From assembly GCA_913057165.1 (NCBI GenBank), contig CAJXNS010000012.1, positions 1 through 37,536 on the forward strand: a DNA stretch of 37,536 nt. The letters run 5' to 3'. Position numbers and translations under genes: made by a program. The number at the start of each line of letters is the position of its first letter. The stretch's first letter is position 1. This DNA comes from an uncultured Trueperaceae bacterium (lineage in GTDB: Bacteria; Deinococcota; Deinococci; Deinococcales; Trueperaceae). Below are positions 17,784 to 28,694 of this stretch, piece by piece. The notes beneath the pieces were generated by a model, which saw only the letters and a program-made list of their open reading frames with translations, was not told the origin of the DNA and did no database searches.

Positions 17784-17829
17784 GCCTGCGCAATCCCCCA
17801 GGAAGACCGAGAGGATCGGCCTTGACGGG

Positions 17830-17835
17830 TATGCT
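17830..17835 (+). promoter_or_regulatory. Leaderless-type -10 box of lepA
   Basis: TATGCT lies 7 nt before the GTG at 17843 (spacer CACGGGC), without a Shine-Dalgarno sequence. It lies in the 59-nt gap after tilS-tadA. Confidence 0.5.
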
Positions 17836-17842
17836 CACGGGC

Positions 17843-19630
17843 GTGAACGTCCGCAACTTTTCCATCATCGCCCACGTCGACCACGGCAAGTCCACACTGG
17901 CGGACCGAATCCTCGAATTTACCGAAAGCGTTGACGAACGTTCGCGTCGCGACCAAATGCTCGATACGTTGGAGCTTGAGCGTGAGCGCGGTATCACCAT
18001 CAAAGCCACGCCGATGCGCGTGTTCTACGAAGCCAACGACGGCCAGACGTACCTGTTCAACCTGATCGATACGCCAGGACACGTTGACTTCAACTATGAG
18101 GTTAGTCGCTCACTGCGGGCTTGCGAAGGGGTTCTCCTCGTGATCGACGCCAGCCAAGGCGTTGAAGCGCAAACCATCCAAAATGCGTTCTTAGCGATTG
18201 AGAATGGCCTTGATGTCGTGCCGGTCATCAACAAAATCGATCTACCCAACGCCAACGTCGAGCAAGCCAAACAGGAACTAGAAGACGTGGTTGGCATTCC
18301 TAGCGACGATGCGGTCGCCGTGTCGGCCAAGACCGGCGAGAACGTCCAAGACATTCTTGAAGCGATCGTTAAGGTCCTCCCGCCCCCGAAGGTAAACGCA
18401 GAAGCACCGTTGCGCGCCCTCATTTTCGACGCGGTGTTCGATTCGTACCAAGGTGTGGTCACGGTGGTCCGTGTGCTTGACGGTGCCATACGGCCAGGGG
18501 ACAAAATCAAAATCATGTCGACCGGCAAAACCTTTGAAGTCGATCGGGTCGGCTTCTTTAAACCCGAACCCACGGTGGACACCGTCCTTGAAGCGGGCAA
18601 CGTTGGGTGGGTGACCGCCGCCATTAAAGACATCGCCGACACCCAGATTGGGGACACCATCACCTCAGCCGAACGACCCGCAGAGCAGCCGGTGCCAGGA
18701 TTTAAGCCTGCCCGGCCTGTGGTGTTTTCGGGGCTTTACCCGACCGATACCGAGGATTACCCCAAGCTACGCGATGCGTTAGAGCGCCTCAGTCTCAACG
18801 ATGCTGCGTTTACGTTTGAGCCTGAGACGTCAGACGCGCTTGGGTTTGGTTTTCGGTGTGGCTACCTCGGTTTGTTGCACGCTGACATCGTGCAAGCGCG
18901 CCTTGAACGCGAGTACGGCCTGAGCCTGATTGCGACGGCGCCGGCTGTTGTTTACCGTGTGATCACCACCGCTGGTGACGAGCGGATGGTGCATAATCCG
19001 TCGATGCTCCCTGAACCGACCGCCATTGCCGAAGCCCATGAGCCGTGGGTAGCCATGTCGGTGTACCTGCCTGAGGATTACGTCGGTTCGGCCATGCAAC
19101 TCCTTCAAGAGAAGCGTGGCGAAATGAAGGACATGATCTATCACGGGCAGCGCGTGGAACTGCGTTACGAGGTTCCCTTTGCCGAAATTCTTTACGAGTT
19201 TCACGACCGCCTTAAAAGCCTAACCAAAGGCTACGCGAGCATGGATTACGAACCGATCGGAGACCGCCCCGGTCAGCTGGTCAAGATCGACGTGCTTGTC
19301 AACGAGGAGCCCGTCGACGCCCTCTCGTTTATTGCCCACCGCGATAAGGCGTATGAGATCGGCCGCAAAATCGTCGACCGGATGGCGGAGGTGATCCCCC
19401 GTCAAATGTTCGCGGTGCCTGTGCAAGCGGCGATCGGTGGCAAGATTTTGGCGCGAGCCACCGTGCGCGCATTCCGTAAGGATGTGACCGCCAAATGCTA
19501 CGGCGGTGACATTACACGCAAGAAAAAACTTCTTGAGAAGCAGAAAAAGGGCAAAGACCGCATGAAGCAGCTGGGTAACGTTGACGTTCCCCAAGAAGCA
19601 TTTTTGGCGGTCCTCTCAAGCGACGATTAG
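17843..19630 (+). CDS. lepA: Elongation factor 4 (LepA), back-translocating GTPase
   Basis: Ribosome-bound GTPase of 595 residues, normal for EF4. I chose the GTG at 17843 so that the protein opens [20 protein letters not shown], like E. coli LepA; upstream TTG and ATG codons would add up to seven unconserved residues. G1 is AHVDHGKST (10-18), G3 DTPGHVDF, G4 NKID. The LepA-specific C-terminal domain is clear: [20 protein letters not shown] then [18 protein letters not shown]. Confidence 0.97.
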
Positions 19631-19727
19631 GCTTTCATCCGGTACGGACATAGCGACGGATAAGCCGCGGTAGGCACCCTTCGGTGTGGAGCGGTGATCA
19701 GGCAGATAATTGAGGTTTGATGCCGGC

Positions 19728-20183
19728 GTGCATGCGCAGTCACGCCAAGCCTTCACCCTCATTGAGGTGCTCGTGATCATCACGATCGCTTCAATCCTGA
19801 CGGCCGTGACCGCCCCGATGCTGCAACGGCCGAGCGGACGGACGACGGCCCTCCAAGTGGTTGCCGTGATGCAAGAGGCACGGTTGCAAGCCTTAGGGGG
19901 CACCAGCAAGGCGGTTGTTGTGACGCCTGGCCAGCTTGACGCGTCGGTGGTGGTCAAGGACCGATCGTGCGATGGTTCTGTGACGCAGCGGCTTGCTCTG
20001 CCCGCCGGCCTGACGGTGCACTCATCATTACGGCGCGGCGTGATCTGGCAGCCTGACGGTTCGGGGCGTACCTGTGCTGGTTCAGGCATCTACGGCGGGA
20101 CCGTGACGGTTCATGGACGCGATACGTGGAAGGTGGTTCTCTCAAGCGTGGGCCGGCTGCGTATGGCGCAGGCCATACCGTAA
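19728..20183 (+). CDS. GspH-like pseudopilin (type II secretion / type IV pilus family)
   Basis: A small protein (151 residues) with a type IV prepilin N-terminus: a short basic leader, then QA/FTLIEVLVIITIASILTA, where the slash marks the expected prepilin peptidase cut and Glu is at +5. The -1 residue is Ala instead of the usual Gly. After the hydrophobic helix, residues to about 60 (VAVMQEARLQALG) resemble GspH, followed by a beta-rich C-terminal part. The start is uncertain: GTG 19728 gives an 8-residue leader, TTG 19710 a 14-residue one. It is first of four co-directional pilin-like genes with overlapping ends. Exact GspH versus PilA/FimT assignment is not certain. Confidence 0.8.
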   Translation: MHAQSRQAFTLIEVLVIITIASILTAVTAPMLQRPSGRTTALQVVAVMQEARLQALGGTSKAVVVTPGQLDASVVVKDRSCDGSVTQRLALPAGLTVHSSLRRGVIWQPDGSGRTCAGSGIYGGTVTVHGRDTWKVVLSSVGRLRMAQAIP

Positions 20184-20359
20184 TGAGGCACGATGCTGTT
20201 TCTGGCATGACCTTGATCGAGGTGGTCGTGGCGCTCGGTTTGCTCGCGCTCGCTGCCAGTTTGTGGTCTGCGTCCGTTGCGGTTCATGCCAACCTCACCC
20301 AGGAAGCCCAGGCGCTGCAGTTGGATGTAGAACGCCTGCGTGGCACGGTTGAACCGTGA
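20183..20359 (+). CDS. Minimal GspI-like pseudopilin (58 residues)
   Basis: Fifty-eight residues consisting of a prepilin leader (MRHDAVSG), a Gly/Met cut site with TLIEVVVALGLLALAASLW (Glu at +5), and only about 25 residues beyond the helix, ending QLDVERLRGTVEP. Typical GspI proteins are roughly twice this long, so this is little more than the assembly helix. The ATG overlaps the previous stop (TAATG), and the end overlaps the next start by 4 nt, so it is translationally embedded in the cassette and unlikely to be a chance open frame. Confidence 0.75.
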   Translation: MRHDAVSGMTLIEVVVALGLLALAASLWSASVAVHANLTQEAQALQLDVERLRGTVEP

Positions 20360-20955
20360 ACCGGCATGCGACGCCAGCGGGCTTTACGCTGCTTGAGGCG
20401 TTGGTGGCGGTCACGCTGTCCATGATGGCGCTCGGGCTTGCCTCACGCCTGGCCATACCGATCATGCAGCACCCCTCGCAAGCGGCCCGCGAGACGCTTG
20501 ATGACGTGCAGGCTCAGCAAGCATGGGAGCTCATCGCAGCTGAGGTGCAGTGGGCGGGCTGGGAGGTTGAAGGTCGCTCCATTTGGATGGAGCCACAGTT
20601 TCAGAACGACCGCGGTGACGCCCTGTGGGTGCGGTATGTCGACGATCGATACCGGACCCGGCCACGCCTGGTGGAAGGGTATTTCACGGCGGGAACGGAC
20701 GGTCTTGGGCAAGCGAACCTCATGTGGACATCGGCAAGCGGTTGGCGCCAGCCGGTCGTTCGTGGTGTGACGCGGTTCCACGTGTTGCAAGCGCGTGACA
20801 AAGCGGGCCGTGAAGCGCCCGCTCATGCACCGAGCATGCGGGGCAAAACTTGGGTGGCGGTGCGAATTCGCGTCGTGTTTGAAGACGGCTCTGAAGACAC
20901 CCGCTGGTTGGCGACCCAATTTCGGACGATCGGCATGTCGGACGATGCGACGTGA
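20356..20955 (+). CDS. GspJ-like pseudopilin
   Basis: A 199-residue protein with prepilin leader MNRHATPAG then FTLLEALVAVTLSMMALGLA (Glu at +5, Gly at -1). The globular part carries WELIAAEVQWAGWEVEG, DALWVRYVDDRYRTRPRLVE and near the end VAVRIRVVFEDGSEDTRWLA, giving the helix-plus-beta layout of GspJ/PilW-type minor pilins. The GTG start overlaps the previous gene (GTGA), and the same overlap links it to the next. Confidence 0.78.
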   Translation: MNRHATPAGFTLLEALVAVTLSMMALGLASRLAIPIMQHPSQAARETLDDVQAQQAWELIAAEVQWAGWEVEGRSIWMEPQFQNDRGDALWVRYVDDRYRTRPRLVEGYFTAGTDGLGQANLMWTSASGWRQPVVRGVTRFHVLQARDKAGREAPAHAPSMRGKTWVAVRIRVVFEDGSEDTRWLATQFRTIGMSDDAT

Positions 20956-21314
20956 GAAACGAAGGATTGGCACTCGTGGCGGCACTGTGGATCCTGGCAG
21001 GCTCGTTGGCTGCGTCATCGCTGCTGATGACATCAGCCAGGGTGGAGTGGTCGGCTGCCTATCACGCCAAACAGCGCGCTGAAGCCTCGTTAGGTGCCAT
21101 GCGTCTGGATGAGGACGTCCAGCAAGCGCTCACGCAAGCGGTTGAGGTGACACCCAAGGACGTATGGCCACCGCAGCCCGATCCGTTACAGGCTTTTCTG
21201 GTTGACGGCTCGGTTGCGTCGGTGCGCTGGATGGACGACGGCGTGCGTTTGGTGATTCAAGTCAGCAGGGAAGACGTTGACGTTCGGTGGCCGCGGTATT
21301 ACCTGCGTCCGTGA
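20952..21314 (+). CDS. Short GspK-like pseudopilin
   Basis: A 120-residue protein opening MRNEG then LALVAALWILAGSLAASSLL. The Gly/Leu cut site, absence of Glu at +5 and ALVAALW.LA pattern are GspK/PilX-like. GspK is normally about 300 residues with a large alpha-helical insert; here only about 90 residues follow the helix (ending WPRYYLRP), so the large insert is missing. Position as fourth gene after H-, I- and J-like genes matches the gspHIJK order. The GTG start overlaps the GspJ-like stop (GTGA). Confidence 0.72.
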   Translation: MRNEGLALVAALWILAGSLAASSLLMTSARVEWSAAYHAKQRAEASLGAMRLDEDVQQALTQAVEVTPKDVWPPQPDPLQAFLVDGSVASVRWMDDGVRLVIQVSREDVDVRWPRYYLRP

Positions 21315-21856: not shown

Positions 21857-22294
21857 CGCCGCTTGGTTATCTCGCGCCAGGGCGTAGATGGCCGCTGCGT
21901 AACTGCGAATCCCAAAGCCACCGATGGTGCCTTCGCAGACAGCGGAAAGCAAACTGTTGTGGCGGAAGCCTTCGCGGGCGTGGACGTTGGTGAGGTGAAC
22001 CTCAACCACGGGTATCGAAACCGAGGCAACGGCGTCACGCAAGGCCACGGACGTGTGCGTGTAGCCAGCTGCGTTTAGGACGACGCCACCAAACGACTCG
22101 TTGGGGGCGTTGTGTAGCCACTCAATCAGAACGCCTTCATGGTTGGACTGCCGGCATTCAACGTCCACACCAAGTTCAGAGGCCAAGTCGCGAACCTCGC
22201 CTTCTAATTCGGCGAGGGTAAACCGGCCGTACGTCTCCGGTTCGCGTTTGCCTAACTGATCCAAATTCGGTCCGTTCAAGACCAACAGTTTCAT
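21845..22294 (-). CDS. aroQ: Type II 3-dehydroquinate dehydratase
   Basis: Third step of the shikimate pathway: 3-dehydroquinate to 3-dehydroshikimate. Length 149 residues, the small dodecameric type II form. It begins MKLLVLNGPNLDQLGKREPE with catalytic Tyr22 in TYGRFTL, and has QSNHEGVLIEWLHNA, LNAAGYTHTSVALRDA with the catalytic His, and VEVHLTNVHAREGFRHNSLL. Last gene of the minus-strand aro cluster; its ATG overlaps the aroB stop by 4 nt. Confidence 0.97.
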   Translation of the reverse strand: MKLLVLNGPNLDQLGKREPETYGRFTLAELEGEVRDLASELGVDVECRQSNHEGVLIEWLHNAPNESFGGVVLNAAGYTHTSVALRDAVASVSIPVVEVHLTNVHAREGFRHNSLLSAVCEGTIGGFGIRSYAAAIYALARDNQAASAS

Positions 22295-23403
22295 GGCGTC
22301 CCCTTCCTTGCGCGTATTGTAGCCACGTCCTCAGCGTACGACGCCCATGCCTCGCGCTCCATGCGGTCGGTCACTTGCGCCAAACGCGCGTGGCCCACGT
22401 CGGGCATGAGGACCCAGCGGCGTCCTACGCCAGCATTTTTCTTGTCGCGTTTTAAGTACGGCAGTAACGCATCAAATGTCACGTCCGGAGGCAGGGGCGC
22501 ATCAATGCGGGCGAGGAGGTCGTGCGCATGCGTGGTCCATGCGTTGAAAGGTACCCGTTCGTGCGCAGCCCAAGCTGCCGAGAGGTGGGCGGCGTATAGA
22601 AGCCCCCACGCAACGGCAACGCCGTGCGCGATGGTGTGCTGAGCGATTGCTTCGTAGGCATGCGCCAGCGTATGGCCCAGGTTGAGCGTGGCGCGCGCGC
22701 CACTCTGTTCGAGGGCGTCCTCGGCAACCACGTCTGCTTTGACGGCCACCGAGCGGGCGAGCACATCGGCAAGGAGGGTCGCTTCAGCATGCGGTTCAAA
22801 GGCATCATCGAGGGCCAACGCAAGGAGCGCCGTGTCGGCAAGCAAACCGTGCTTGGCGATCTCAACGCGGCCTTCATTGAACCGGTCCTGAGGCAACGAC
22901 GCGAGCGTCGCGACGTCCATGTACACCGCGGCAGGCTGCCAGAAGGCACCCACAAGGTTTTTACCTTCAGGCAGGTTGATCCCGGTCTTGCCGCCCACTG
23001 CCGCATCGGCCATGGCCAGCAGGCTGGTAGGGATTTGCACGAAGGGTAAACCGCGCGCGTACGTGGCGGCGACAAACCCAGCGAGGTCGCCGACCACACC
23101 ACCGCCGACGGCCATAACGGTGGTGTCTCGCGTCACACCTGCGTCCGCCATGGTCCGCAAGACCGTCTGCCACGTATCCACCGACTTGCTGCCTTCACCG
23201 GCTGGGACCGTGATGTGCAAAGGCTGCCTGCCTTGGGTGGATAGGGCGTCCACCAACGCTTGACCGAGGACGCCCCGGGTGTGCTCGTCGTCAATGATGA
23301 CCGCCCGTCCGTGCGTCTCTGACGTGATGCGTTCAAGCAGGTTGACGCCGATGTGGATTGGGTAGGCCGGGTCGGCTTGCACGTGAATGGTACGCAGGTT
23401 CAT
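22291..23403 (-). CDS. aroB: 3-dehydroquinate synthase
   Basis: Second step of the shikimate pathway, converting DAHP to 3-dehydroquinate with NAD and a divalent metal. Length 370 residues. The NAD/active-site core is VMAVGGGVVGDLAGFVAATY, then RGLPFVQIPTSLLAMADAAV and GGKTGINLPEGKNLVGAFW; metal-binding His residues lie in NLGHTLAHAYEA and HGVAVAWG. It overlaps aroK upstream and aroQ downstream by 4 nt each, so the three are coupled. Confidence 0.97.
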   Translation of the reverse strand: MNLRTIHVQADPAYPIHIGVNLLERITSETHGRAVIIDDEHTRGVLGQALVDALSTQGRQPLHITVPAGEGSKSVDTWQTVLRTMADAGVTRDTTVMAVGGGVVGDLAGFVAATYARGLPFVQIPTSLLAMADAAVGGKTGINLPEGKNLVGAFWQPAAVYMDVATLASLPQDRFNEGRVEIAKHGLLADTALLALALDDAFEPHAEATLLADVLARSVAVKADVVAEDALEQSGARATLNLGHTLAHAYEAIAQHTIAHGVAVAWGLLYAAHLSAAWAAHERVPFNAWTTHAHDLLARIDAPLPPDVTFDALLPYLKRDKKNAGVGRRWVLMPDVGHARLAQVTDRMEREAWASYAEDVATIRARKGTP

Positions 23404-23999
23404 GCTTGCCCGATGCCTTTCACGGCTTCGTGGTTGGGATGCTCCGCCGCCCAGCGGCGCAAACCATCCACCACGTCTGCGACCACGTCACTGGCATCGC
23501 GGTCGTCGCTTTCCACCGTGAACGATGCAGCCTCCTGGTAGAACGACTCGCGTTCACGCAGCAGGTCTCGGATGCGCTCGGTTGGGTCGCCCACCTCCAG
23601 CAGGGGTCGCTTATGACGGCGGGTGCGTTTATAAATGGTTTCCGCCGCGGCATTCAGACGGACGACGGGCCCACGGCCCGCGAGCAAAGCCCTGTTTTCA
23701 GGACGCACCACGGTACCGCCGCCGGTGCTGATGACCGCACGGTCGAGGCGTAGCGAGCGACGTACCACCTCGGTTTCGTAATCTCGGAAGGTTGCCTCGC
23801 CGTAAAGTTCAAGAATTTCCGGGATGGTCAAACAGGTAATCCGTTCGATCACCTTGTCTGTATCAATAAACGTGAGCCGGAGGATGCGCGAGAGTTCCCA
23901 ACCGATTCGGCTTTTACCGGTCCCCATGAACCCAATCAGGGCAACCCAAGACACCGGCGGGTCAGGATCGGTTTGGATCGGCACACGCGCTTGCGCCAT
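23400..23999 (-). CDS. aroK: Shikimate kinase
   Basis: ATP-dependent phosphorylation of shikimate. Length 199 residues. Walker A is GFMGTGKS (23-30), the shikimate/Mg site is DTDK (46-49), and there is a STGGGTVVRPENRALL segment and the LID RTRRHKRPLL. About 17 residues precede the usual start, and the C-terminus is slightly long. It lies 5 nt after the aroC stop and overlaps aroB by 4 nt. Confidence 0.96.
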   Translation of the reverse strand: MAQARVPIQTDPDPPVSWVALIGFMGTGKSRIGWELSRILRLTFIDTDKVIERITCLTIPEILELYGEATFRDYETEVVRRSLRLDRAVISTGGGTVVRPENRALLAGRGPVVRLNAAAETIYKRTRRHKRPLLEVGDPTERIRDLLRERESFYQEAASFTVESDDRDASDVVADVVDGLRRWAAEHPNHEAVKGIGQA

Positions 24000-24004
24000 G
24001 ATCG

Positions 24005-25159
24005 TTAGTAACCGTCGACGTACGCTTGGTGTTGCTCCGCTCGTTCCCGGATCTCACGAACGGTGTCGGAGCCAAACTTTTCCATAACGGCGTCCGCAAG
24101 CACCATGGACGCCATCGCAAATAGGACGATCGACGCGGCAGGCACCGCGGTTGTGTCGCTACGTTCGCGAGCAGCGTCGGCCGGCTCGCCGGTCGTGACG
24201 TCCACCGTCGGCAGTGGCTTCATGAGGGTCGCGATCGGTTTCATGGCAGCGCGCACCACCAGCTCTTCACCGTTGGTGATGCCAGCCTCAAGCCCACCGG
24301 ACCGGTTGGTTTGGCGGTAGTAGCCTGCATCGCCTTTGTAGATGGCGTCGTGCACGTCGCTGCCGGGAACGGTGGCGTTGCGCCAACCATCGCCGATTTC
24401 AACGCCCTTAATGGCTTGGATGCTCATGGCTGCCTGTGCCAGTCGCCCGTCAAGTTTGCGGTCCCACTGCACGTGGCTTCCCAGGCCGATCGGCACCCCG
24501 CGAAAGCGAGCCTCGATGATGCCACCGAGCGTGTCACCGTCACGTTTTGCAGCGTCGATACGCTCAATGATTTCAGCTTCCTTATCGCGATCAAACGTGC
24601 GCAGGGGAGACTCATCGAGGGTATCGAGGTTCGACCAATCTGCTTCACCTTCGCAGTCAACCCCACCAAGGTGGGTCACGCGCGCCATGCCCTCGATTCC
24701 GATCTCTTCGAGGATGCGGTAGGCGACCGCGCCGGCGGTCACGCGGCTTGCGGTCTCGCGGGCGCTGGCGCGCTCCAAGACGTCACGAAGGTCTTTGTGG
24801 CCGTACTTGATGCCACCCGCTAAATCGACGTGGCCAGGGCGGGCTTCGGTCAGCGCCCGTTTGCGTGGCTCATTACCTGGCGCGGGAGACATAATTTCCG
24901 TCCAGTTACGCCAATCTTTGTTCTCAATCTGAAAGGCAAGCGGCGCTCCCGTGGTGCGTCCGGCGCGAAGACCTGCGCGTGCTTCGGCGGCATCCGTTTC
25001 GATCACCTGCCGGCGGCCACGTCCGTACCCACCCTGGCGTCTGCGAAGCCACGGGTCAATATCACGTTCGGTTACCAGGTCAAGGCCTGCAGGGACACCG
25101 TCGATCATGACGGTTAAGGCTGGGCCGTGAGATTCACCGGCGCTGAGAAAGCGGAACAT
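24005..25159 (-). CDS. aroC: Chorismate synthase
   Basis: Last step to chorismate, using EPSP and reduced FMN. Length 384 residues from the ATG at 25159 (MFRFLSAGESHGPALTVMID); a longer frame up to 25309 has 50 unconserved residues and is rejected. Signatures: YGRGRRQVIETD, GHVDLAGGIKYGHKDLRDVL and ERASARETASRVTAGAVAYR. It lies 52 nt after the PilN/O/P-like gene and carries its own -10-like box just before the ATG. AroE and AroA are not in the window, so the pathway is split. Confidence 0.97.
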   Translation of the reverse strand: MFRFLSAGESHGPALTVMIDGVPAGLDLVTERDIDPWLRRRQGGYGRGRRQVIETDAAEARAGLRAGRTTGAPLAFQIENKDWRNWTEIMSPAPGNEPRKRALTEARPGHVDLAGGIKYGHKDLRDVLERASARETASRVTAGAVAYRILEEIGIEGMARVTHLGGVDCEGEADWSNLDTLDESPLRTFDRDKEAEIIERIDAAKRDGDTLGGIIEARFRGVPIGLGSHVQWDRKLDGRLAQAAMSIQAIKGVEIGDGWRNATVPGSDVHDAIYKGDAGYYRQTNRSGGLEAGITNGEELVVRAAMKPIATLMKPLPTVDVTTGEPADAARERSDTTAVPAASIVLFAMASMVLADAVMEKFGSDTVREIRERAEQHQAYVDGY

Positions 25160-25166
25160 GACGCGT

Positions 25167-25172
25167 AACCTA
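25167..25172 (-). promoter_or_regulatory. Leaderless-type -10 box of aroC
   Basis: TAGGTT on the minus strand lies 7 nt before the ATG (spacer ACGCGTC), with no Shine-Dalgarno sequence. This suggests aroCKBQ can be transcribed separately from the upstream pil-like genes. Confidence 0.45.
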
Positions 25173-25211
25173 CCACTTTTGGTCCGTCTCTTTCGTGCCG
25201 GACGGCTTTCG

Positions 25212-26396
25212 TTAACGGAGTAAATCGAGTTCGTACGTCTCTCCGTCCAGCGTGACGGTGGCTTGGTTTGCATGCAAGGCAAGCAGGACCGCATCGTCGC
25301 GCTGGGCACGGCTCGGGTGCACGGCTAGAACGCTTTGCTGGGTTCGTGTGTCCATCAGTAGAACAGACTCGTGCGGGCCGGTAGCCCAAGCGTGGACGCG
25401 GACGGGTGGTTGAACCCCATCGTGCGTGCGCGCAACGGTATTTGGTTCTGATGGCGGCACCCACGGCAAATCACCGACGTCGATGTGGGTTGGGGTGCCC
25501 TCCGTCCTGGAGGCAATGCGTCCAGTGAAGGTCAGCTGGTCCGGTTGCGTGCTTGGCGCTAAGGTCCACTCCAACCAGCGGTAGGCGGGGTGGGCGTGAA
25601 AGGCGTAAATGACGTCCGTGACCGCCGCAGAGGATCCCATGCCGGTGACGTTTAGGCCTTCCGTCGTGGCGTCACCGGACGCCGTATCAAGGATGGCGGC
25701 GTGTTGCAGAAGCACGGCGTTTAACGACGGGGCGGGTTGACCGATTGTGTCGCGTTCGGTTGGTTGTGTGGTGGTGACTCCAGGTGGGCTGACGGTCCAC
25801 AGGTGCGCGGGTGTACGTCCTGCAATCGTAAGTGTCGGCTGTCCTTTGTTCGCTTCTACGTGGGTGGTCTTAAGGGCCGTACCCATGGCGGCGGTGAAGG
25901 CGTCCCATGCCTTGGCGTGTTGGACGTCAAAGGTCATGAGGATATGGGCGTCTGGGGCTTGCCGTTGGCCTTCATACGCTAAAGAATTGAGTCCCAGCTG
26001 GTGATCCCGAAGGATGACGGCCGGGTTGATTTGGGCATCACCGGTCACAGCGACAGAACGGTCGATCGGTTGATCGGGTGCCGCGGGTGTGGGGGACGGC
26101 TCAGGCTTGGCGCGATCGCCGGATGGTGTGGGTGCCGCATTCGGTTCGGCGAGACGGGTGGGGCTTTCGTTCACGCCGGGCGGTGTGGAGATCGAGGGGG
26201 CCTCGCGTTGGGTGAACGTGACTGTGGCAGCGACGGCGCCTATGGCGAGCGTTAAGGACGCCATCCACCAGCCAGCTCGCCGGGTCAACCAAGCGGGCTT
26301 GCGGGTGGCGCGTCGCACCCGACGTGATTGGCCTGCGCCAGGCTGTCCGGTTGGGCGTTCCACCAGATTCAGCGTCCAGTCGGTCGGCATGTTCAC
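25212..26396 (-). CDS. PilN/PilO/PilP-like (or GspM/GspC-like) inner-membrane assembly protein
   Basis: A 394-residue protein with a short cytoplasmic N-terminus (WTLNLVERPTG, PilN-like), one membrane helix at about 43-62 (WWMASLTLAIGAVAATVTF), a proline-rich linker to about 112, and a periplasmic part. Residues 225-295 resemble a PilO/GspM ferredoxin-like domain; the end (VLLMDTRTQQSVLAVHPSRA, then VTLDGETYELDLL) resembles a PilP/GspC beta domain. I therefore read it as a PilN-O-P type fusion, by pattern only. The GTG at 26396 overlaps the upstream stop (GTGA) and has GGAGG 9 nt before it; a longer frame running to 27083 is out of frame with the upstream gene. No secretin gene follows. Confidence 0.65.
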   Translation of the reverse strand: MNMPTDWTLNLVERPTGQPGAGQSRRVRRATRKPAWLTRRAGWWMASLTLAIGAVAATVTFTQREAPSISTPPGVNESPTRLAEPNAAPTPSGDRAKPEPSPTPAAPDQPIDRSVAVTGDAQINPAVILRDHQLGLNSLAYEGQRQAPDAHILMTFDVQHAKAWDAFTAAMGTALKTTHVEANKGQPTLTIAGRTPAHLWTVSPPGVTTTQPTERDTIGQPAPSLNAVLLQHAAILDTASGDATTEGLNVTGMGSSAAVTDVIYAFHAHPAYRWLEWTLAPSTQPDQLTFTGRIASRTEGTPTHIDVGDLPWVPPSEPNTVARTHDGVQPPVRVHAWATGPHESVLLMDTRTQQSVLAVHPSRAQRDDAVLLALHANQATVTLDGETYELDLLR

Positions 26397-27265
26397 CCGG
26401 TATGTCCTCCAGCAGCGGCCTGCCATGCCAACGTGGAGGGAGCCGGTCGTGAGGCCGCCGTTGGGGTCCACGGCCGGCGTAGGGCAGGCGCCGCAGCAGG
26501 ATGCGTCGTACCCACACTTGCGCCATCCCACCAGCCGTTGGGGGCGTCGATAATGGTGGGCGACTCCGTGCCGTCCGCGGCTCGAGGGTTGTGTTCGGCG
26601 TTGGTGCCTTCCGGGGATGGCCCGCGGCGCCGGAGGCTTTGGGGAAGACCGTCGTCCCATTCGCAGGCGAGCGCATGATCGCCTGCTTCGGTGATGTAGC
26701 GAGCCCGGTTGAGGCCTTGGGCGTTCAGGACCGCCCGTTGGTGTTGGAGCGCATGCAGCATGGCCGGTTCGATCGACACGACCGGTACGCCCCAGGCGGC
26801 GAACGCCTTGGTGTAGGTGCGAAGCATGCCGGTTCGGCAAGCGACGACAAACAGGATGGGCTGGTCGTTCCGCTCGCCGAGTGGGCAAACCCGAACGTCG
26901 ATGCGGTCGGGAGGGTAGGGCAGACGGCGTCCAAGGAACCGTTTGGTGGAGGTGAGTGGGTCCTCCTCTGGGTCGCTGGGCGTGTGGATATCGGTCCACA
27001 AATCCTTTGAGGCGATCACGAGGCGCACGGCCTCCTTCCGGCCGAGATCGCCAACGGTTGGCTTGAGGTTGTGTTTGACCCACGCTTGTAGTGACGCTTC
27101 ATTGCGTGTCCGCGGCCAGTCTGTCTCATGCCAGACGACGTCCGCTTCAGGGTCGATGGCGGCCCCTTCGGCGAAGGACGCCACCCATCCGTTGTCGACG
27201 ACCACCCGGCGAACGGCCGGAGGTGTCCGGCGTGACGGTCGCAGGAACGGGATGGGTTGGCGCAC
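26393..27265 (-). CDS. PilM/GspL-like cytoplasmic protein (divergent)
   Basis: A 290-residue soluble protein without a membrane helix. Residues about 136-180 (ILFVVACRTGMLRTYTKAFA, then AWGVPVVSIEPAMLHALQ) match the PilM/GspL pattern (vaa....v..y...l...Gl.v..ve...lAl). The phosphate-binding loop of nucleotide-binding PilM (a DIGSSSVK-like motif) is missing; the N-terminus reads RRVVVDNGWVASFAEG, closer to the GspL cytoplasmic domain, which does not bind nucleotide. The last 80 residues are low-complexity. It is coupled (GTGA) to the membrane protein that would be its partner and starts at GTG 27265, 6 nt after a TAGCCT box. Confidence 0.62.
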   Translation of the reverse strand: MRQPIPFLRPSRRTPPAVRRVVVDNGWVASFAEGAAIDPEADVVWHETDWPRTRNEASLQAWVKHNLKPTVGDLGRKEAVRLVIASKDLWTDIHTPSDPEEDPLTSTKRFLGRRLPYPPDRIDVRVCPLGERNDQPILFVVACRTGMLRTYTKAFAAWGVPVVSIEPAMLHALQHQRAVLNAQGLNRARYITEAGDHALACEWDDGLPQSLRRRGPSPEGTNAEHNPRAADGTESPTIIDAPNGWWDGASVGTTHPAAAPALRRPWTPTAASRPAPSTLAWQAAAGGHTG

Positions 27266-27271
27266 GTCCTG

Positions 27272-27277
27272 AGGCTA
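27272..27277 (-). promoter_or_regulatory. Leaderless-type -10 box of the pilM-like gene
   Basis: TAGCCT on the minus strand lies 6 nt before the GTG start (spacer CAGGAC), without a Shine-Dalgarno sequence. It lies in the 91-nt gap after dnaB, so the pil-like/aro genes need not depend on dnaB transcription. Confidence 0.5.
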
Positions 27278-27356
27278 ATCTGCACAGGTCACATGCTGTG
27301 CGGCCGCCTGCGTTTGCGCCTAGCAGGCTTAGGCAATCACCGTCTTACGCGCTGGG

Positions 27357-28694
27357 TTATGCGTTCGCTCGCGCGAGATCGTTGAAGCGCACGTGCGCGC
27401 TGTGGAACTGCAGATCAATCGACCCGACCGGTCCATTGCGTTGCTTGCCGATCAAGATTTCGGCGATGCCTTGCCGTTCACTGTTCGGATCGTAGTACTC
27501 GTCACGGTAGATGAACATCACCAAGTCTGCATCTTGCTCAATGGCTCCCGATTCCCGCAGGTCCGACAGCATCGGCCGTTTGTTGGGGCGGCTCTCCACG
27601 GCGCGTGAAAGCTGGGAAAGCACCAAGACGGGGACGTCCAGTTCGCGTGCGAGTGCCTTTAAGCCACGCGAGATGTTGGAGATCTCTTGCTGGCGGTTCT
27701 CAGGACCCCCGCGGCTTGACTGTGGGCCTGACATGAGCTGGAGGTAGTCGATGACAATCAGTCCAAGCTCGTGCTCGGCCATGAGGCGGCGTGCGCGGCT
27801 GCGTAACTCCATCACCGTCATGTCGGCTTCGTCATCGATGAAGATGCCGGCATCACGCATTTTGCCTGCGGTATCCGCCAGGCGCTTAAAGTCACGTTCC
27901 GAGAGTTGTCCGTTGCGGACGCGGCTCATGTCCACCCGTGCTTCGCTACACAGCATGCGGGTGACCAGTTGGAGGCTGGACATTTCTAAACTGAACACGC
28001 CGACCGCTTTGCCTTCGCGCAGCGCGACGTGCTGCGCCATGCTCAACGCGAGTGCGGTTTTCCCCATGGAGGGGCGAGCGGCCAGCACATTGAGGCTTGA
28101 CGGCTGTAGTCCGGCGGTCATGTGATCCAACTCTTTGAAACCGGTGCGCAAACCCGAAATCGGGTCGGGGTTCTGAAACAGCTCATGAATGTAATCAAAT
28201 GTTTCATTCACCAGGTGGTGCATGGCATCAAAGCCGTGCTGCCGGCGGCTGCTTGCCAGCTCAAAGATATGACGCTCCGCCGCATCCAGTGTCTCAGCCA
28301 GCGGCATCGACTCGTCGTACGCCGTCTGCATGATTTTCCCGGACGCTGAAATGAGGTCCCGAAGCACCGCCTTTTCAACGACAATGCGGGCGTAACTCTC
28401 CGCGTACGCCGCCGTTGGCACCCCTTCAGCAAGGCCGACAAGGTAGGGAAGACTTCCGATGGAGTCCAATTCCCCCTCCACCCGCAGGGCTTCAGCAAGG
28501 GTGACCAGGTCGATCGGTTCGCTTTGGCGGTAAAGGCGGTCCATGGCCTTAAAAATGGTGCGGTGCGCTTCCTTATAAAAGTGCTCTGGTCGAAGCGTGC
28601 CTTCAAGCGTGGCGAACACGTCGTTGTCTAGAAGGATGCCGCCTAGGACGCTTTGTTCGGCCTCTAGGTTTTGCGGCGGTGTCTTCGAGTCCAT
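27357..28694 (-). CDS. dnaB: Replicative DNA helicase DnaB
   Basis: Hexameric 5'-3' helicase of the replication fork, 445 residues. The N-terminal collar begins PPQNLEAEQSVLGGILLDND. The RecA-like ATPase domain has Walker A ARPSMGKT (206-213), LEMSSLQLVTRMLCSEA, Walker B LIVIDYLQLM, and the H4-type SQLSRAVESRPNKRPMLSDL then RESGAIEQDADLVMFIYR. No intein or insertion. The ATG start lies 6 nt after a TACGAT box. It diverges from the 28770 gene, with 75 nt between starts. Confidence 0.97.
   Translation of the reverse strand: MDSKTPPQNLEAEQSVLGGILLDNDVFATLEGTLRPEHFYKEAHRTIFKAMDRLYRQSEPIDLVTLAEALRVEGELDSIGSLPYLVGLAEGVPTAAYAESYARIVVEKAVLRDLISASGKIMQTAYDESMPLAETLDAAERHIFELASSRRQHGFDAMHHLVNETFDYIHELFQNPDPISGLRTGFKELDHMTAGLQPSSLNVLAARPSMGKTALALSMAQHVALREGKAVGVFSLEMSSLQLVTRMLCSEARVDMSRVRNGQLSERDFKRLADTAGKMRDAGIFIDDEADMTVMELRSRARRLMAEHELGLIVIDYLQLMSGPQSSRGGPENRQQEISNISRGLKALARELDVPVLVLSQLSRAVESRPNKRPMLSDLRESGAIEQDADLVMFIYRDEYYDPNSERQGIAEILIGKQRNGPVGSIDLQFHSAHVRFNDLARANA

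What the first reader, a model, noticed from the sequence alone, without database searches (positions are those of the whole stretch)
25160..27265. pil-like locus beside aroCKB lacks the secretin and is reduced to two genes
As I recall, Thermus has pilM-N-O-W-Q followed by aroC-K-B. Here only a PilM/GspL-like and a fused PilN/O/P-like gene precede aroC, and the 52-nt gap leaves no room for PilQ. Combined with the small pseudopilin cassette, this suggests either a streamlined secretion/pilus machine with its secretin elsewhere, or a system that does not cross an outer membrane by a secretin.
Basis: partly seen in the sequence, partly recalled or inferred. Interest (0 to 1): 0.68.

Follow-up and report, generated by a model that had tools for sequence, protein, structure and literature searches.

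The report
Dismantled pilus operon beside aromatic genes
A bacterium related to Truepera has lost the outer-membrane pore gene and most other recognisable genes of its ancestral pilus operon, keeping two strongly altered genes in their place, while a separate and nearly complete pilus-like machine with its own pore sits elsewhere in the genome; this looks like a retractable pilus rebuilt into non-retracting, secretion-like machinery.

Summary
Upstream of aroC-K-B-Q lie only two genes (290 and 394 aa), 52 nt from aroC, with no secretin. In relatives (Trueperaceae) the same slot, between dnaB and aroC, holds pilM-N-O-W-Q; I found this order in 14 genomes, three of them in the same genus. So the slot is ancestral, and the secretin was lost here rather than never present. 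The secretin lies elsewhere: one gene split over two contigs (C60/C16), in a separate P-M-N-O-Q operon beside GspF/PilC and a GspE/PilB ATPase. "No secretin" is therefore refuted for the genome. The ancestral pilus decayed in place at two further loci: at the pilF locus the ATPase is 488 instead of about 885 aa and PilT1 is gone (no PilT found in the genome), and the H-I-J-K pseudopilin cassette in the window is syntenic but only 27-35% identical. Homology of the pair to pil proteins is partly shown: the C-terminus of gene 2 matches the PilW secretin-binding (HR-like) domain (0 of 2000 shuffles; best of 409 ORFs). The PilM match is collinear but not significant; PilN/PilO content is unproven. 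Likely reading: a rapidly evolving, non-retracting T2SS-like remodelling, with a reduced platform that shares or has lost its channel.

The parts
26393..27265 (-). Gene 1: 290-aa soluble protein in the ancestral pilM position; candidate PilM/GspL-type cytoplasmic protein, shorter than the 394-395 aa PilM of relatives
   Evidence: Position between dnaB and aroC as in relatives; collinear hhalign match to PilM residues 85-180 (RRLPYPPDRI... / RYIPFPIDEV...), pairwise E 0.054; 46 of 2000 shuffles score as high, so not significant alone; codon-usage signal
25212..26396 (-). Gene 2: 394 aa, one predicted TM segment (about residues 44-62), Pro/Ala-rich linker, C-terminal domain like that of PilW (GspC-HR-like); reads as a compressed PilN/O/W region, PilN/O part inferred
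   Evidence: C-terminal 66 aa vs Trueperaceae PilW C-terminal HMM: 9.7 bits, 0/2000 shuffles; rank 1 of 409 ORFs; hhalign above all 110 null proteins; single-sequence AF2 (pLDDT 36.9) shows H-E-H-E-E at 223-294
26406..26410 (-). Shine-Dalgarno-like GGAGG, 9 nt before GTG start of gene 2, which overlaps the stop of gene 1 (GTGA)
   Evidence: sequence
25160..25211 (-). 52-nt gap where pilQ stands in relatives
24005..25159 (-). aroC (chorismate synthase)
   Evidence: Pfam PF01264 2.9e-109
23400..23999 (-). aroK (shikimate kinase)
   Evidence: PF01202 2.3e-43
22291..23403 (-). aroB (3-dehydroquinate synthase)
   Evidence: PF01761, PF24621
21845..22294 (-). aroQ (type II dehydroquinase)
   Evidence: PF01220 2.2e-56
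27357..28694 (-). dnaB replicative helicase, the conserved upstream neighbour of the pil operon
   Evidence: 85% identical to the dnaB flanking the pil operon in L010
19710..20183 (+). Pseudopilin (H-like) of the 4-gene minor pilin cassette, in its ancestral place beside scpB
   Evidence: N_methyl 3.3e-6; syntenic, 30-35% identical in G034, G033, G021
20126..20359 (+). Pseudopilin (I-like), 77 aa
   Evidence: N_methyl 7.5e-5
20356..20955 (+). Pseudopilin (J-like), 199 aa
   Evidence: N_methyl 1.5e-4; syntenic, 27-32% identical
20952..21314 (+). K-like last gene of the pilin cassette, 120 aa
   Evidence: 27% match (E 0.004) in G013 in the same place

Best explanation
The two genes are what remains, in place, of the ancestral pilM-N-O-W-Q operon of a Trueperaceae type IV pilus. 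pilQ was deleted between pilW and aroC. pilM was shortened to a GspL-sized soluble protein. The pilN/O/W stretch was compressed into one single-pass membrane protein that still ends in the PilW/GspC-like secretin-contacting domain. The same pilus was dismantled elsewhere: pilF lost its N-terminal GspII repeats, and pilT1, pilT2 and the syntenic pilC are gone or unrecognised. The pilin cassette stays but diverges fast. The genome also carries a second P-M-N-O-Q operon with GspF and a GspE/PilB ATPase. Most likely the pair is an inner-membrane connector for a non-retracting, T2SS-like pseudopilus. Gene 1 would bind the assembly ATPase, and the HR-like end of gene 2 would dock on the only secretin, supplied in trans from C60/C16. 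Shown: positions, losses, the second operon, the PilW-like C-terminus. Inferred: PilM homology of gene 1, the PilN/O part of gene 2, function, sharing of secretin and GspF.
For: Same slot, dnaB to aroC, holds pilM-N-O-W-Q in 14 relatives including 3 of the same genus. The PilW C-terminal domain match is at the very end of the gene next to aroC, as expected if pilQ was deleted. The in-situ pilF remnant (C17, 488 aa) keeps its neighbours HAD and leuC but lacks PilT1. The pilin cassette is syntenic at 27-35% identity while most neighbours are 66-83%. Only two T2SSE ATPases exist and neither is PilT; one GspF; one secretin. The secretin contigs have the window's tetranucleotide profile (0.95-0.97) and dovetail by 285 bp. 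Intact ORFs with coding signal and a coupled GTGA junction argue against junk.
Against: No significant similarity of gene 1 to PilM, although the same profile finds PilM in another family at E 2e-127. Nothing in sequence supports PilN or PilO content of gene 2. AF2 models of both are poor, 36.9 and 34.3 pLDDT. No homologue of either gene in 38 relatives, so no alignment depth. The MAG is 95% complete, so PilT, a second GspF or a second secretin could be missing.
Confidence: 0.6

Rival explanations
1. Decaying relic: the C60/C16 machine took over, and the pair (with the pilF remnant and pilin cassette) is drifting to loss without function.
For: Extreme divergence of all in-situ pilus genes; the C17 ATPase branch is 1.52 changes per site against 0.02-0.06 for genus mates; other relatives (G038, G029) have no pil genes before aroC.
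Against: Both ORFs are intact over 290 and 394 codons, with coding signal in the right frames and a tidy overlapping junction with ribosome site; the ATPase and pilin ORFs are intact too.
Confidence: 0.2
2. Unrelated replacement: the pil operon was deleted and two unrelated orphan genes now occupy the slot; the resemblance to PilM and PilW is chance.
For: No database family for either gene; weak scores for PilM and none for PilN/PilO.
Against: Exact slot; matching order of a soluble protein followed by a single-pass protein with Pro-rich linker; PilW C-terminal match ranks first of 409 ORFs and beats 2000 shuffles; two other ancestral pilus loci persist in place as fast-diverged genes.
Confidence: 0.15
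3. The pair is the platform of a machine that works without any secretin, like the compact GspL-E-F-M clusters without a secretin gene seen in other families of the order (L141-L144).
For: No secretin at the locus; such compact clusters exist in the order.
Against: Gene 2 keeps a domain whose PilW counterpart is reported to contact the secretin (PMC13039148); a secretin is present in the genome; the compact clusters show no HR-domain gene.
Confidence: 0.05

Closest known systems
pilM-N-O-W-Q operon of Trueperaceae and the Thermus type IV pilus/DNA translocator
   Same: Position between dnaB and aroC-K-B; soluble first gene; last membrane protein with Pro-rich linker and PilW-like C-terminal domain
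   Different: Two genes instead of five; no secretin; first gene about 100 aa shorter; no significant sequence match for M, N, O; no PilT in genome; pilF homologue about 400 aa shorter
Type II secretion system inner-membrane platform GspC/L/M
   Same: GspL-sized cytoplasmic protein, single-pass protein with HR-like domain, no PilT, GspH-I-J-K-like pseudopilin cassette
   Different: No GspD/E/F in the cluster; arrangement is the ancestral pil slot, not a gsp operon; no significant match to GspL/M/C profiles for the pair
Second P-M-N-O-Q operon of the same genome (C60/C16)
   Same: Same functional set; its P protein also matches the PilW C-terminal profile (rank 2); M protein also short (282 aa)
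   Different: Separate N, O, P genes, own secretin, adjoining GspF and ATPase; no detectable similarity between the two M proteins
Compact secretin-less GspL-E-F-M clusters in other families of the order (L141-L144)
   Same: Small pseudopilus platform without an adjacent secretin
   Different: Encode their own GspE and GspF, full-length GspL with TM, no HR-domain protein seen

Membership tests
Type IVa pilus pilM-N-O-W/P-Q operon | Five genes M, N, O, W/P, Q in order | tested here: not met
   Only two genes; no separate N, O or Q gene
Type IVa pilus pilM-N-O-W/P-Q operon | Genomic slot between dnaB and aroC as in the lineage | tested here: met
Type IVa pilus pilM-N-O-W/P-Q operon | PilM homology of first gene | tested here: inconclusive
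   Collinear match, E 0.054; 2 of 110 null proteins and 46-101 of 2000 shuffles as good
Type IVa pilus pilM-N-O-W/P-Q operon | PilW/PilP (HR-like) C-terminal domain in the last membrane protein | tested here: met
   0/2000 shuffles, best of 409 ORFs; E 0.75 in that ORF search, so modest
Type IVa pilus pilM-N-O-W/P-Q operon | PilN and PilO ferredoxin-like domains | tested here: inconclusive
   No HMM support; low-confidence model shows H-E-H-E-E at 223-294
Type IVa pilus (genome level) | Retraction ATPase PilT | tested here: not met
   Only two T2SSE hits, both full-length assembly type; relatives have PilF plus PilT1 and PilT2; MAG 95% complete
Type II secretion system | GspD, E, F, C, L, M and pseudopilins | tested here: inconclusive
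   Secretin, two ATPases, one F, GspM-like O protein and pseudopilins exist but in several loci; NCBIfam scores of E, F, D below equivalog cut-offs for both T2SS and T4P
Type II secretion system | Protein secretion across the outer membrane | not testable with these tools
   needs experiment

The most novel reading that the evidence does not exclude
A single genome in which a retractable type IV pilus was converted in place into a non-retracting machine. The PilN, PilO and PilW functions are merged into one transmembrane connector that works with a minimal PilM, and this second platform shares one secretin and one GspF with a parallel, nearly complete system.
Probability: 0.3. Interest if true: 0.65.

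Novelty: new variant of a known kind. Interest (0 to 1): 0.48.

Why it matters
[quoted passage not shown] Here, within one genus, close relatives keep a standard pilus while one member shows what may be the intermediate products at identifiable ancestral loci: retraction ATPases lost, ATPase shortened, secretin moved or replaced, platform genes merged. That makes the conversion, and the minimum inner-membrane platform, open to direct comparison and test.

Tried and rejected
Pfam, NCBIfam and PDB sequence searches with both proteins gave nothing useful. Genome searches for homologues of either gene in the family, and a genome-contig scan for gene 2, found only the window itself or chance matches. 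AF2 without an alignment gave poor models. Foldseek of the gene 2 model gave only E>0.7 matches; Amuc_1100 appears among them but I give this no weight. Alignments with distant PilM sequences were not used for AF2, because they would bias the fold. A frameshift joining gene 1 and gene 2 was considered, since frame 0 is open from 27083. It was rejected because of the GTGA overlap with a well-placed ribosome site and the frame-specific codon signal down to about 26510. Contamination of C60/C16 was considered and rejected on tetranucleotide profile. Two secretin genes instead of one were considered; the end-to-end 285-bp overlap (15 mismatches) fits one gene broken by strain variation. The origin of the C60/C16 set is unresolved: the GspF tree is weak, but both ATPases fall with Deinococcota PilF (99/98).

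Full report
What is in the window. The window (contig C12 of a 1.78-Mb, 106-contig, 95% complete MAG) holds, on the minus strand, dnaB (28694-27357), a 290-aa gene (27265-26393), a 394-aa gene (26396-25212), 52 nt, aroC (25159-24005), aroK, aroB and aroQ. The stop of the first gene and the GTG start of the second overlap (GTGA), with GGAGG 9 nt upstream. Codon usage favours the stated frames over most of both genes and is weakest around 26510-26050.

What stands there in relatives. The genome belongs to Trueperaceae: the best named aroC matches are Truepera sp. and Trueperaceae/Deinococci MAGs at 74-78% identity. I fetched the aroC region of 27 other genomes of the family. In 14 of them profiles recover pilM (about 395 aa), pilN (about 205), pilO (about 197), pilW (294-441) and pilQ in this order directly before aroC, in several with dnaB upstream; three of the 14 are in the same genus, where an FtsH-like gene also lies between dnaB and pilM. 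Named records show the same order: Truepera sp. AVDCRST_MAG86, Trueperaceae PLM2.Bin25, Deinococci BWSM_114, and Thermaceae S012_106, where the Trueperaceae profile still finds pilM at 2e-127 and pilW at 3e-10. Some relatives (G038, G029) have no pil genes before aroC. So the slot is the ancestral pil operon, and the window has lost pilQ.

Where the secretin is. PF00263 hits two contig ends, C60 and C16. They overlap end to end by 285 bp with 15 mismatches and share the window's tetranucleotide profile (0.95-0.97), so they are best read as one gene of this genome broken by strain variation. C60 carries minor pilin-like genes, a P-like protein, a 282-aa M-like protein, N-like, O-like (PilO profile 1.7e-10; GspM-like by NCBIfam) and the secretin; C16 carries GspF/PilC and a GspE/PilB-like ATPase. 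The names M and N on C60 rest on gene order and size, not on a significant profile match. The genome therefore has a nearly complete second set.

The rest of the ancestral pilus. Relatives have one PilF of about 885 aa with PilT1 next to it and PilT2 elsewhere. This genome has just two T2SSE proteins, 530 and 488 aa, and no PilT. The 488-aa one on C17 sits at the pilF locus: hydrolase, HAD protein, ATPase, then leuC, with PilT1 missing in between. In a tree both ATPases fall with Deinococcota PilF (99/98) and the C17 one has a branch of 1.52 against 0.02-0.06 for genus mates. The pseudopilin cassette at 19710-21314 in the window is also in its ancestral place beside scpB, 27-35% identical to relatives, where most neighbours are 66-83%. 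GspF/PilC is 29-36% identical to all PilC in the phylum, while PilC within Trueperaceae is 71-95% identical. The pilus genes of this lineage have thus changed far faster than their neighbours, at several loci.

Are the two genes pil genes? Neither has a Pfam, NCBIfam or useful PDB match, and neither has a homologue in 38 other genomes of the family. Gene 1 aligns with PilM in register with PilM residues 85-180, but the score is reached by 2 of 110 other proteins and 46-101 of 2000 shuffles: suggestive only. Gene 2 aligns at its extreme C-terminus with the C-terminus of PilW: hhalign score above all 110 null proteins, 66-aa tail 9.7 bits and 0 of 2000 shuffles, rank 1 of 409 ORFs, with the P-like protein of C60 at rank 2. 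In that ORF search the E-value is 0.75, so the match is modest on its own and gains weight from position. The tail was chosen after seeing the alignment. The PilN and PilO parts have no sequence support. AF2 without an alignment gave poor models; that of gene 2 shows a helix-strand-helix-strand-strand block at 223-294, the order expected of a PilN/PilO domain, at pLDDT around 50.

How it probably works. In Thermus, PilM binds the N-terminus of PilN, PilN and PilO form the membrane ring, and PilW, whose C-terminal domain resembles the GspC homology region, links them to PilQ (PMC13039148); PilM also binds the ATPase PilF (PMC6325625). By analogy, gene 1 would be the cytoplasmic adaptor and gene 2 the membrane-spanning connector ending in a secretin-contacting domain. 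As there is one secretin and one GspF in the assembly, this platform would have to share them with the C60/C16 set, or these partners are missing from the MAG, or the pair is in decay. Without PilT the filament would not be expected to retract by the usual route, as in T2SS. All of this paragraph is inference.

Verdict.

Noticed in passing
19710-21314: Four-gene pseudopilin cassette (157, 77, 199, 120 aa) between gene 17822-19630 and scpB, syntenic but only 27-35% identical in relatives while most neighbours are 66-83% identical.
   Followed up: yes
L132 5620-10170 (G000 C17): pilF locus with a shortened ATPase (488 aa) and PilT1 missing between it and leuC.
   Followed up: yes
L003 1-7147 and L004 16031-19242 (G000 C60, C16): Second P-M-N-O-Q operon with a 511-aa minor pilin-like gene, GspF and ATPase; its proteins are also very distant from relatives; origin unresolved.
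   Followed up: partly
L141-L144: Compact pseudopilin-GspL-GspE-GspF-GspM clusters without an adjacent secretin gene in other families of the order.
   Followed up: partly
L030 6329-8959, L028 1230-6047: Relatives G038 and G029 have no pil operon between dnaB and aroC (in G029 one unassigned ORF lies between).
   Followed up: no
27266-27356: The FtsH-like gene that lies between dnaB and pilM in same-genus relatives is absent from this junction in the window.
   Followed up: no
L172 (Deinococcus sp. KNUC1210 plasmid): Plasmid-borne cluster of secretin, GspF and prepilin genes in Deinococcus.
   Followed up: no
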